Shown one piece after another: positions 62,437 through 64,000 of a stretch of DNA of 64,000 nt. The notes under the pieces were generated by a model. The model saw only the letters and a list, made by a program, of their open reading frames with translations, was not told the DNA's origin and did no database searches. The stretch is taken from contig PXDB01000079.1 of the NCBI GenBank assembly GCA_003565155.1, positions 32,893 through 96,892 of the forward strand. Direction: 5' to 3'. The position numbers and the translations under genes are program-made. This stretch comes from Nitriliruptoraceae bacterium (lineage in GTDB: Bacteria; Actinomycetota; Nitriliruptoria; Nitriliruptorales; Nitriliruptoraceae). The stretch's first letter is position 1. Every line of letters starts with the position of its first letter.

Positions 62437-63267
62437 TCAGGCAGCCGGGTCCTCCGCCAACTCCGCCAGCACCTCGTCGAGGGGGATGTCCCGCTCACGT
62501 GCCTCGTGCTTCGCGAGGAGCAGCGTGGTGCGGTCCGGGGTGACCCGCTGCTCGGGCACCGGGTGCGGATCGGGCGCGGGTTCGGCATCATCGGCCGGCC
62601 CAGGCCCGTCACCGTCTCCCCCGCCCACGCTGTCGGAGTTGGCGCCGCTCGCACCGTCAGCGTTGTCCCCAGGGTCCTCGTCCGTGGCGGGGGCTGGCGT
62701 CGGCTCGGGCTGCGGTGCGGGATCGGTCGCCGGCTCCGGCTCCGGCTCCGGGGCCGCGCTGCTGGCACCGGTCGGCTGGCGGAACATCTGGGTGACCCAG
62801 ATCGTGCCGTCGACGACCACGACCCCGATGCCGATCTGCGTCCAGTCACCGCCGAGGATGTTGGCCCGGTGGCTCGGGGAGTCCATCAGTGCACGGTGTA
62901 TCGCGTCGACCGAGGGCCCCCGTCCCACGTTCTCGCCGAGCTTCTGCCACCCGCTGACGCTGCCGCCGAGGTTGGGGTTGTGGTGCAGGTTGCTCGCGTT
63001 GCCCATCACGCGGCTGTGCGCTCGCGCCGCGGAGGTCAGGTCCCCGGCCACCGCCAGGGCGGGCAGGCCGTGGGCCGCGCGTGCGTCGTTGGCGGCGGCG
63101 ATGAAGGCGGCCTCGATGCCGCTGTCGGCGTGGGCTGGACCCGTGAGTGGGGGCAGGGACGCCGCCACGAGTGCCAGCGCTGCCACGAGCAGCACCGATC
63201 GCGGTCGACCCCACGCAGCGGTCCGAGAGGGCCGGTGGGATGGGCTCGGGACGAGAAGGGGTGCCAC
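62437..63267 (-). CDS. Secreted CAP-domain (SCP/PR1) protein
   Basis: 276 residues. Signal peptide (VLLVAALALVAASLPP, cleavage after AHA) then a CAP domain (about 45-165): ANDARAAHGLPAL, LGENVGRG, SPSHRANILGGDW and WVTQMFRQP. A Pro/Glu/Asp-rich linker (about 168-235) precedes a short C-terminal segment. CAP proteins are extracellular; bacterial ones are linked to envelope remodelling or adhesion. GTG 63267 has a weak ribosome site. The 5' leader resembles a c-di-GMP-I riboswitch with a hairpin-prone expression platform (CCCCACGTGGGG at 63295). Confidence 0.85.
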   Translation of the reverse strand: MAPLLVPSPSHRPSRTAAWGRPRSVLLVAALALVAASLPPLTGPAHADSGIEAAFIAAANDARAAHGLPALAVAGDLTSAARAHSRVMGNASNLHHNPNLGGSVSGWQKLGENVGRGPSVDAIHRALMDSPSHRANILGGDWTQIGIGVVVVDGTIWVTQMFRQPTGASSAAPEPEPEPATDPAPQPEPTPAPATDEDPGDNADGASGANSDSVGGGDGDGPGPADDAEPAPDPHPVPEQRVTPDRTTLLLAKHEARERDIPLDEVLAELAEDPAA

Positions 63268-63311
63268 GGGTGCGTCCGTTCAGCCTGGACGGAGCCCCAC
63301 GTGGGGGGTAG

Positions 63312-63404
63312 GAGGTTCCTTCGGTAGCCCGGTGGTCCTAGCCGCCATGCGCCCGTAGACCCGGTGCTTTGCTGACCGCCCTTTCGGACGGGGTGCCGTT
63401 GTCG
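63312..63404 (-). promoter_or_regulatory. Cyclic di-GMP-I (GEMM)-like riboswitch
   Basis: Reading the minus strand from about 63404, the RNA shows the GEMM-I order: CGGCACCCCG, stem CCGTCC-GAAA-GGGCGG with the GNRA tetraloop, the invariant-like AGCAAAGC, CCGGGTCTA, a closing hairpin, CTAGGACCA and CCGGGCTACCGAAGG. These track Vc2-type features (GGCAAACC, GAAA loop, GACGCAAAGC, GGCCUA, UAGGUAGC, GGGGUUACCGA). It lies in the leader of the CAP gene. Downstream, CCCCACGTGGGG (63295-63306) could form a control hairpin. The rest of the 303-bp gap between the CAP and glutaredoxin genes shows no other gene. Confidence 0.6.
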
Positions 63405-63570
63405 AGAAGCTCCGCCTGCGTCGTTCGCCCCCGGTATCGGCGCACGCGACGGTGCGCTTTAGGCCACCCTCATGCCAGCGATGGGTCTGGGGTAGCGCCC
63501 GGCGCCGCGCGACCCCGGTGGTTGATCACCGGGGGATAGGGTCACGCCCGCCCAACGCGGGGAGTCGTCG

Positions 63571-63855
63571 ATGGCGCGTCACCGACCCTCGATCGTCGTC
63601 TACACCCGTACCGGCTGCGGTCTGTGCGTCGCAGCCGAGCGGTTGGTGGCTCGTGAGGCGCAGCGCCGGGCGCCCCTGCCGTCCCGCGCGGACATCGAGG
63701 TGGTCGATGTCGACGCCGACGAGGAACTGGTGCGCCGTTTCGGCGTGCGCGTTCCCGTGGTGGTCGTGGACGGTCGGGAGGTGGCCGAGCTGGAGGTCTC
63801 CCGCGATGCGGTACGCGGTGCGTTGCGCGCCGCCCGACGCCGTCGGGCCGGCTGA
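63571..63855 (+). CDS. Glutaredoxin-like protein
   Basis: 94 residues. Thioredoxin fold with an N-terminal CxxC (YTRTGCGLCVAAE) and the cis-Pro strand VRVPVVVVDGREVAELEV. The C-terminus is Arg-rich. It matches small glutaredoxin-like proteins (Rv0508 type, near hemA in mycobacteria). A role in mycothiol-linked redox is plausible given mshA in the window. ATG 63571. Confidence 0.85.
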   Translation: MARHRPSIVVYTRTGCGLCVAAERLVAREAQRRAPLPSRADIEVVDVDADEELVRRFGVRVPVVVVDGREVAELEVSRDAVRGALRAARRRRAG

Positions 63856-63860
63856 GTTCC

Positions 63861-64000
63861 GCGGCTGTGCGTGCACCCCGTGCGGCCCTCGGCCGCGCGC
63901 CCGTACCGCACGGCCCGCGGCTGTGCGTGCACTCCGTGCGGTCCGCGGCCGCGCGCCCCTGCCGCACGGCCCGCGGCTGTGCGTGCACCCCGTGCGGCCC
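63861..64000. repeat. 56-bp tandem repeat array, open at window end
   Basis: The string GCGGCTGTGCGTGCAC recurs at 63861, 63917 and 63973, a period of 56 bp, with minor changes between units, and continues to the window edge. Each unit contains CCGTGCGG and CCGCACGG, which can pair. It follows the glutaredoxin-like gene by a few bases. No protein is supported on either strand. Confidence 0.75.

What the first reader, a model, noticed from the sequence alone, without database searches (positions are those of the whole stretch)
63268..63404. GEMM (c-di-GMP-I) riboswitch-like leader before a CAP-domain secreted protein
The minus-strand leader shows, in correct order, a GNRA-capped P2 stem, AGCAAAGC, a paired CCGGGTCTA...CTAGGACCA segment and GGGCTACCGA. 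Upstream hairpin CCCCACGTGGGG could be the expression platform. A c-di-GMP switch controlling a secreted envelope protein in an actinobacterium would be notable, because CAP and Rpf genes there are better known from c-di-AMP switches.
Basis: partly seen in the sequence, partly recalled or inferred. Interest (0 to 1): 0.7.

Follow-up and report, generated by a model that had tools for sequence, protein, structure and literature searches.

The report
c-di-GMP riboswitch behind a WhiG-type promoter
In this actinobacterial genome the gene for a predicted secreted CAP-domain protein starts with an RNA leader that matches the known c-di-GMP riboswitch and lies behind a predicted WhiG/flagellar-type promoter, so the signal c-di-GMP would likely shut off the gene's translation; riboswitch matches in front of CAP genes recur in several families of the phylum.

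Summary
In detail: window 63407-63320 (minus) matches Rfam RF01051 at 50.1 bits (cut-off 35), with canonical ligand-contact bases. The claimed surprise is not: 155 of 396 sampled genomes of the phylum have RF01051 matches, and CAP genes are recurrent targets (13 of 48 hits in the class, 24 of 90 examined outside it). What is new lies around the aptamer. (1) In Nitriliruptoraceae the 5' flank GACGGAGC can pair with GCUCCGUC, the strand that can also mask the ribosome-binding site; helix P1 beside it covaries. This suggests a translational switch, likely OFF with c-di-GMP; the window's own masking hairpin is weak. (2) The leader lies behind a sigma28-type (WhiG/FliA) promoter, T(A/C)AAG-N15-GCCGATA. 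That motif precedes 28 of 46 class riboswitches and 20 of 30 others in the phylum (other windows of the class loci: 0.7%). The genome encodes a WhiG, and WhiG is elsewhere held by c-di-GMP through RsiG (PMC8325347). So c-di-GMP may gate the same gene twice. RsiG was not tested; direction and ligand binding are inferred.

The parts
63457..63461 (-). predicted -35 element TAAAG of a sigma28 (WhiG/FliA)-type promoter
   Evidence: one of 4 exact matches to TMAAG-N14..16-GCCGATA in the whole assembly (backward-read control: 1)
63435..63441 (-). predicted -10 element GCCGATA; transcript start expected about 63430 (inferred)
63409..63416 (-). 5' flank GGCGGAGC, complementary (one G-U) to 63295-63288 (helix P0, anti-sequestor strand)
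   Evidence: sequence; 12-row alignment A1: 99.0% of P0 cells paired, no covariation
63403..63408 (-). P1 5' strand UUCUCG
   Evidence: 3 of 6 P1 pairs change on both sides among 12 leaders
63320..63407 (-). c-di-GMP-I aptamer (RF01051); G at 63397, A at 63370 and C at 63324 correspond to model positions 11, 38 and 83 (Vc2 G20, A47, C92 by recalled numbering)
   Evidence: 50.1 bits, cut-off 35
63316..63323 (-). P1 3' strand CG-AA-GGAA
63311..63314 (-). proximal CUCC, can pair with GGAG of the 5' flank (P1 outer part)
   Evidence: folding only
63295..63306 (-). hairpin CCCC-ACGU-GGGG; no U-run after it
   Evidence: sequence
63288..63295 (-). distal strand GCUCCGUC: can pair either with the 5' flank (P0) or with the ribosome-binding region (sequestor)
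   Evidence: invariant in 12 of 12 leaders; RNAalifold finds P0 unaided
63273..63280 (-). AACGGACG, predicted ribosome-binding region (GGA) that can pair with CGUCC
   Evidence: the hairpin of this copy is no better than shuffles (z -0.09)
62437..63267 (-). CAP-domain (YkwD-like) protein, 276 aa, GTG start, hydrophobic N-terminus (predicted secreted)
   Evidence: PF00188 52.3 bits; TIGR02909 59.6 bits, below its cut-off of 171

Best explanation
The leader at 63461-63267 (minus strand) holds a c-di-GMP-I aptamer match behind a predicted sigma28-type (WhiG/FliA) promoter and likely acts as a translational OFF switch: c-di-GMP binding would stabilise helix P1, and the strand GCUCCGUC would then be free to mask the predicted ribosome-binding site of the CAP-domain gene. 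Without ligand, the 5' flank (GACGGAGC in most relatives, GGCGGAGC here), which resembles the ribosome-binding region, is predicted to pair with GCUCCGUC (helix P0, extended by the P1 5' strand) and to leave the ribosome-binding site open. Shown: the aptamer match, the complementarities, the covariation of P1, the promoter-motif enrichment, and the WhiG and GGDEF genes in the genome. Inferred: ligand binding, the direction of switching, the use of WhiG rather than FliA, and secretion.
For: Aptamer. Canonical contact bases: G at model position 11 and GCAAAGC, against GCGAAGC in the GGC variant consensus. P1: 3 of 6 pairs with changes on both sides; in the joint P1+P0 count 10 cells change on both sides (0 of 500 shuffles reach that) and 98.2% of cells pair (at most 55.4% when partners are slid). 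P0: 99.0% of cells paired; 11 of 12 flanks reach a helix of at least 8 bp with G-U allowed (7 of 12 without), shuffled flanks 7.7%; RNAalifold on the 12 leaders returns P0 plus three pairs in the P1 5' strand unaided, a helix that excludes part of P1. Direction: with the aptamer pairs enforced, P0 is at most 0.11 in 11 of 11 leaders where the constraint took effect, and the sequestor rises in 8 (by 0.06 or less in 4 of these) and is unchanged in 3. Vc2 is called the best known GEMM-I example, a translational OFF switch in which P1 is key (PMC9262584, passages). Sequestor hairpin better than the shuffle mean (z -1.4 to -4.6) in 9 of the 10 leaders given to the test, of 12. Promoter: 28 of 46 class and 20 of 30 phylum leaders, against 11 of 9200 shuffles and 32 of 4442 other windows of the class loci. 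Sigma: NF004935 WhiG 361.1 bits, cut-off 343; closest solved chains 6pfj/6pfv at 281-283 bits, FliA chains at 150. Ligand supply: 16 GGDEF matches.
Against: The window's own sequestor hairpin is no better than shuffles (z -0.09). P0 shows no covariation, and the number of covarying pairs alone (3) is reached by 63 of 500 shuffles. With the aptamer enforced but before the ribosome-binding site is transcribed, P0 still dominates in 10 of 11 leaders, which would suit an ON switch. The same-genus leader L062 has no detectable aptamer yet keeps P0 and sequestor, and its full-length fold favours the sequestor (0.77, P0 0.00), as do 7 of the 11 other full-length unconstrained leaders (above 0.5), so the anti-sequestor state is not shown to win at equilibrium. 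FliA reads the same promoter consensus (PMC8325347), and the genome has flagellins and a second, FliA/WhiG-family sigma match on the contig of one flagellin. No ligand assay was possible.
Confidence: 0.55

Rival explanations
1. Translational ON switch: the ligand-bound aptamer (P1) carries P0 as an outer helix in a three-way junction, so GCUCCGUC stays occupied and the ribosome-binding site stays open at high c-di-GMP.
For: In truncated transcripts with the aptamer enforced, P0 is at 0.62 to 0.98 in 10 of 11 leaders; P0 (8 bp) is compatible with P1.
Against: In full-length transcripts with the aptamer enforced, P0 is at most 0.11 in 11 of 11. RNAalifold extends P0 into the P1 5' strand, which makes P0-extended and P1 exclusive.
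Confidence: 0.27
2. The aptamer binds another ligand: 3',3'-cGAMP, or the ligand of the GGC variant class.
For: RF03167 (c-di-GMP-I-GGC) scores 51.1 bits, slightly above RF01051 on the same stretch; the relative G048 has GCGAAGC as in the GGC consensus.
Against: 51.1 is below the RF03167 gathering score of 59; this RNA has GCAAAGC, not GCGAAGC, and G, not A, at the position equivalent to Vc2 G20, described as a selectivity factor (PMC9262584, passage). The genome has 16 GGDEF matches.
Confidence: 0.08
3. Transcription-level control through the hairpin CCCCACGUGGGG or Rho.
For: Relatives in another family (f19) with a CAP gene show a terminator-like hairpin with a T-rich stretch after the aptamer (a run of seven T in L099 and L111), so c-di-GMP-CAP platforms differ between clades.
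Against: No U-run follows the hairpin here; the invariant strand in the 12 family leaders can pair with the ribosome-binding region.
Confidence: 0.07
4. The promoter belongs to the flagellar FliA, not to WhiG, so there is no second c-di-GMP gate (this rival does not exclude the switch itself).
For: Both sigmas share the consensus (PMC8325347, section 14); flagellins are present and another sigma match of this family lies on the contig of one flagellin.
Against: The four exact motif matches of the assembly lie before a pilV-like prepilin ORF, a polysaccharide biosynthesis gene, this CAP gene and an ORF that I did not identify, none seen before a flagellar gene; in Rubrobacter predicted WhiG promoters lie in the type IV pilus cluster (PMC8325347).
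Confidence: 0.35

Closest known systems
c-di-GMP-I (GEMM-I) riboswitch, RF01051; Vc2 of Vibrio cholerae
   Same: Full-length aptamer match, GNRA-capped P2, canonical contact bases, P1 as the pivot, predicted masking of the ribosome-binding site (OFF), as reported for Vc2 (PMC9262584, passages).
   Different: Here the predicted anti-sequestor is the RNA 5' of P1 that resembles the ribosome-binding region; the target is a CAP-domain gene; a sigma28-type promoter precedes it. I did not compare the Vc2 platform base by base.
c-di-GMP-I-GGC riboswitch, RF03167
   Same: Same clan; 51.1 bits.
   Different: Below its cut-off of 59; GCAAAGC in place of GCGAAGC.
c-di-AMP (ydaO) riboswitches before rpf/nlpC in Actinobacteria (PMC9960051, passages)
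   Same: Cyclic dinucleotide control of cell-envelope proteins; the C. glutamicum nlpC switch is thought to act on translation.
   Different: Other aptamer and ligand; RF00379 not found in this genome.
[quoted passage not shown]
   Same: Same promoter consensus, TAAA and GCCGATAA; type IV pilus genes as targets in Rubrobacter.
   Different: That paper's main text has no occurrence of 'riboswitch'; here the promoter motif precedes a c-di-GMP riboswitch. RsiG was not tested in this genome.

Membership tests
c-di-GMP-I riboswitch (RF01051) | Covariance score at or above the gathering score | tested here: met
   50.1 against 35 bits, model 1-87
c-di-GMP-I riboswitch (RF01051) | Contact bases for c-di-GMP: G at the Vc2 G20 position, A in GCAAAGC, C in the 3' CC | tested here: met
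   G 63397, A 63370, C 63324 by the model alignment; Vc2 numbering recalled, G20 role from PMC9262584
c-di-GMP-I riboswitch (RF01051) | P1 helix closing the junction | tested here: met
   3 of 6 pairs covary among 12 leaders
c-di-GMP-I riboswitch (RF01051) | Ligand binding and ligand-dependent expression | not testable with these tools
   no bench assay
c-di-GMP-I-GGC (RF03167) | Score at or above 59 bits and GCGAAGC | tested here: not met
   51.1 bits, GCAAAGC
cGAMP variant of GEMM-I | A in place of G at the Vc2 G20 position (recalled) | tested here: not met
   G at model position 11
c-di-AMP riboswitch (RF00379) | Match above the gathering score | tested here: not met
   no match in the window or in the genome
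Translational (ribosome-binding-site masking) switch | Stable sequestor hairpin including the ribosome-binding site | tested here: inconclusive
   9 of the 10 leaders given (of 12) fold better than the shuffle mean (z -1.4 to -4.6); the window's own does not (z -0.09)
sigma28/WhiG regulon | -35 TAAA and -10 GCCGATAA with about 15 nt between | tested here: met
   TAAAG-N15-GCCGATA; the eighth -10 base is C in place of A
sigma28/WhiG regulon | A WhiG-family sigma in the genome | tested here: met
   NF004935 361.1 bits, cut-off 343
sigma28/WhiG regulon | Transcript start at the motif, dependent on that sigma | not testable with these tools
   no transcript data
WhiG/RsiG c-di-GMP switch | RsiG with E(X)3S(X)2R(X)3Q(X)3D | not tested

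The most novel reading that the evidence does not exclude
In much of the phylum c-di-GMP-I riboswitches are built onto sigma28/WhiG promoters as one module, so that c-di-GMP gates the same surface genes (type IV pilins, CAP-domain proteins, matrix-like proteins) twice in series: through RsiG-WhiG at the promoter and through the riboswitch at the ribosome or terminator. CAP-domain proteins would be a core, so far overlooked, output of c-di-GMP in actinobacteria.
Probability: 0.35. Interest if true: 0.8.

Novelty: new variant of a known kind. Interest (0 to 1): 0.6.

Why it matters
If true, it links two known c-di-GMP receptors, the WhiG anti-sigma and the GEMM-I riboswitch, into one circuit, and names CAP-domain proteins, whose bacterial role is poorly known (recalled), as c-di-GMP targets in several families of the phylum. 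It also gives a testable sequence rule: a sigma28 motif followed by a GEMM-I aptamer marks the regulon.

Tried and rejected
Terminator reading of CCCCACGUGGGG: dropped, no U-run. c-di-AMP reading: dropped. GGC variant: dropped on score and on the GCAAAGC sequence. Rarity in the phylum: dropped. One origin for all CAP riboswitch genes: not supported; in a 66-row tree of few columns the 11 riboswitch CAP rows of the family fall in one starred group of 17 with 6 rows without a riboswitch, and those of other families lie elsewhere. Direction from folding: kept only as a lean; the enforced-aptamer constraint did not take effect for G055 (same energy and structure with and without), so that row is left out of the counts (my notebook entry says 12 of 12 and is superseded). 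The P1 constraint for the two G039 leaders held 5 pairs, not 6. Sequestor shuffles were run on 10 of 12 leaders; G063 and G056, near copies of others, were not given. Rows dropped: 2 of 48 class hits from the promoter count for short upstream sequence; 1 of 48 (G013, 43 bases downstream) from the CAP scan; several of the 90 phylum stretches are cut short by contig ends. Literature: no paper in the library holds the terms (c-di-GMP-I riboswitch, Actinobacteria, GEMM), or riboswitch and c-di-GMP with 'CAP domain' and Actinobacteria, with 'SCP-like' or with 'CAP superfamily'; most subscription papers are not in that library, so absence in print is not shown. The 'cap' gene under a c-di-GMP switch in Bacillus thuringiensis is a collagen adhesion protein, not a CAP domain (PMC4933901, listing and start of abstract). 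PMC7266159 and PMC9481103 were seen in passages only; a term search in PMC8835794 gave nothing. Promoter pattern: the relaxed form was shaped on the class leaders, so only the 30 phylum leaders are an independent test.

Full report
CHECK OF THE OBSERVATION. Rfam's c-di-GMP-I model matches window 63407-63320 on the minus strand over its whole length at 50.1 bits (gathering score 35; E 8.4e-7). It is the only match at E up to 0.001 in the assembly, which is 3.5 Mb in 129 contigs and 83% complete; the window ends where contig C118 ends. With laxer filters the clan competition prefers RF03167 (c-di-GMP-I-GGC, 51.1 bits), but that is below its gathering score of 59, and the RNA has GCAAAGC where the GGC consensus has GCGAAGC. 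The base at the Vc2 G20 position is G. The aptamer is therefore filed as canonical c-di-GMP-I. The gene below is a CAP-domain protein with a hydrophobic N-terminus (PF00188).

WHERE IT IS.

DISTRIBUTION. RF01051 occurs in 36 of 66 class genomes with 48 hits, 46 of them over the cut-off, and in 155 of 396 sampled phylum genomes, 152 over the cut-off. Downstream genes of the 48 class hits (one, G013, has too little sequence to tell): CAP domain in 13 (the 13 coincide in contig and position with Pfam CAP matches), a prepilin with GFTLIELL in 17 (read by eye), and the rest mixed, among them two camelysin/TasA-like proteins, two CWB2 cell-wall binders, a GGDEF protein, a response regulator, and several without a Pfam match. 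Outside the class I took the 30 best-scoring hits and the next 60 of the list (90 of a longer list that the tool cut): 24 have a CAP domain downstream by a profile that I built from the window's domain, in seven other families (family labels). c-di-AMP switches (RF00379) are in 6 of 66 class genomes and not in this one.

LEADER ANATOMY. Twelve family leaders (11 before CAP genes, one before another gene) were aligned (A1). Immediately 5' of the aptamer they have GACGG(A/G/C)GC, GGCGGAGC in the window, and 3' of it all have GCUCCGUC (12 of 12). P1 (six pairs with a two-base bulge) has three pairs with changes on both sides; P0 (flank with GCUCCGUC) is paired in 99.0% of cells but hardly varies; in the joint count the paired cells, the cells changed on both sides and the covariation score exceed all 500 shuffles, the number of changed pairs (3) is reached by 63 and the number of further pair types (6) by 499. 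RNAalifold, not told of P0, returns it and extends it by three pairs into the P1 5' strand. Counted so, 97.0% of cells pair, with no double change. Flanks of 11 of 12 leaders reach a helix of at least 8 bp (G-U allowed) with the first 70 downstream bases; shuffled flanks 7.7%; other class leaders 9 of 35; phylum leaders 18 of 90. The same strand GCUCCGUC can pair with the ribosome-binding region just before the start codon; nine of the ten such hairpins given to the test fold better than the shuffle mean, the window's own does not (z -0.09).

DIRECTION. Unconstrained full-length folds give P0 0.43 and sequestor 0.24 in the window's leader; the sequestor is above 0.5 in 7 of the 11 others. Transcripts cut two bases after GCUCCGUC give P0 of 0.87 to 1.00 in 12 of 12. 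With the aptamer and P1 enforced, full-length P0 is at most 0.11 in 11 of 11 leaders, and the sequestor rises in 8 (by 0.06 or less in 4) and is unchanged in 3 (G055 left out because its constraint had no effect). By the ensemble energies, enforcing the aptamer makes P0 costlier in 10 of these 11 and cheaper in one (G063). Against this, cut transcripts with the aptamer enforced keep P0 at 0.62 or more in 10 of 11. I lean to OFF, in line with Vc2 (PMC9262584, passages read), at roughly 2 to 1.

PROMOTER. Upstream of the aptamers lies T(A/C)AAG-N13..16-[GAT][CT]CGA[TC]: 28 of 46 class leaders (2 of 48 dropped for short upstream sequence), 0 of 46 reverse complements, 11 of 9200 shuffles, 32 of 4442 other windows of the same loci; and 20 of the 30 best phylum leaders (stricter form 23 of 46 and 11 of 30). 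In the window it reads TAAAG-N15-GCCGATA at 63461-63435. In the whole assembly the exact form TMAAG-N14..16-GCCGATA occurs four times (backward control once): before a prepilin-like ORF (TIGR02523 27.9 bits, below its cut-off of 52.2), a polysaccharide biosynthesis gene (PF02719, 209.6 bits), this gene, and an ORF that I did not identify. This is the flagellar/WhiG consensus; in Rubrobacter predicted WhiG promoters lie in the type IV pilus cluster, and c-di-GMP arms RsiG to bind WhiG (PMC8325347: abstract, passages and section 14 read). The genome has a WhiG (NF004935, 361.1 bits; nearest solved chains 6pfj/6pfv, named only as sigma factors and recalled to be the Streptomyces WhiG-RsiG complex), and also flagellins and a second sigma match of this family, so FliA remains possible. 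Genomes with RF01051 have a FliA/WhiG-family sigma over the cut-off in 34 of 36 cases, those without in 16 of 30 (Fisher p 1.2e-4; by genus 21 of 22 against 7 of 13, p 0.006; relatedness not controlled, and the model does not part FliA from WhiG).

NATURAL VARIANTS. In a same-genus genome (L062) the CAP leader keeps the promoter motif, P0 and sequestor, but no aptamer is detected; L079 and the window genome's second CAP gene (L033) have the motif without a detected riboswitch. Of the 27 CAP loci without a riboswitch that I had fetched (not all of those), 8 have the motif, in a slightly laxer form, within 450 bases upstream of the domain, one of 27 on the reverse strand. This suggests that the promoter link to CAP genes can exist without the aptamer.

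VERDICT. A real member of a known riboswitch class with a new arrangement around it. The strongest new fact is the coupling of GEMM-I leaders to sigma28-type promoter motifs and to CAP genes; the weakest step is the direction of switching. Steps inferred: ligand, direction, sigma identity, RsiG.

Noticed in passing
L062 (G065:C250), same genus: CAP ortholog leader keeps the sigma28-like promoter motif, GACGGAGC, GCTCCGTC and sequestor but has no detectable aptamer: a natural aptamer-loss variant.
   Followed up: partly
L033 (G000:C84, second CAP gene of this genome): CTCAAG-N15-CCCGAT a few tens of bases before its start codon, without a detected riboswitch.
   Followed up: partly
L088, L092, L096, L097, L099, L100, L105, L109-L112 (family f19): CAP riboswitch leaders with a terminator-like hairpin and a T-rich stretch after the aptamer (seven T in a row in L099 and L111), so another platform type for the same gene kind.
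   Followed up: no
L042 (G063:C156:48-122 and 2581-2655): Two RF01051 matches on one short contig, each before an ORF with a lipoprotein-like start; the first ORF carries SpaA-like domains.
   Followed up: no
L026 (G048) leader: This relative has GCGAAGC, as in the c-di-GMP-I-GGC consensus, in an otherwise similar leader.
   Followed up: no
L040 (G039:C24): Same leader type as the CAP leaders, but no ORF of 60 aa or more was listed at the expected start; the next clear ORF (183 aa, 285 bases after the aptamer) has no Pfam match.
   Followed up: no
window 63859-64000: GC-rich direct repeat (GTGCACGCACAGCCGCGG, three copies 56 bases apart) at the contig end, beyond the divergent glutaredoxin-like gene at 63571-63855 (+).
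   Followed up: no
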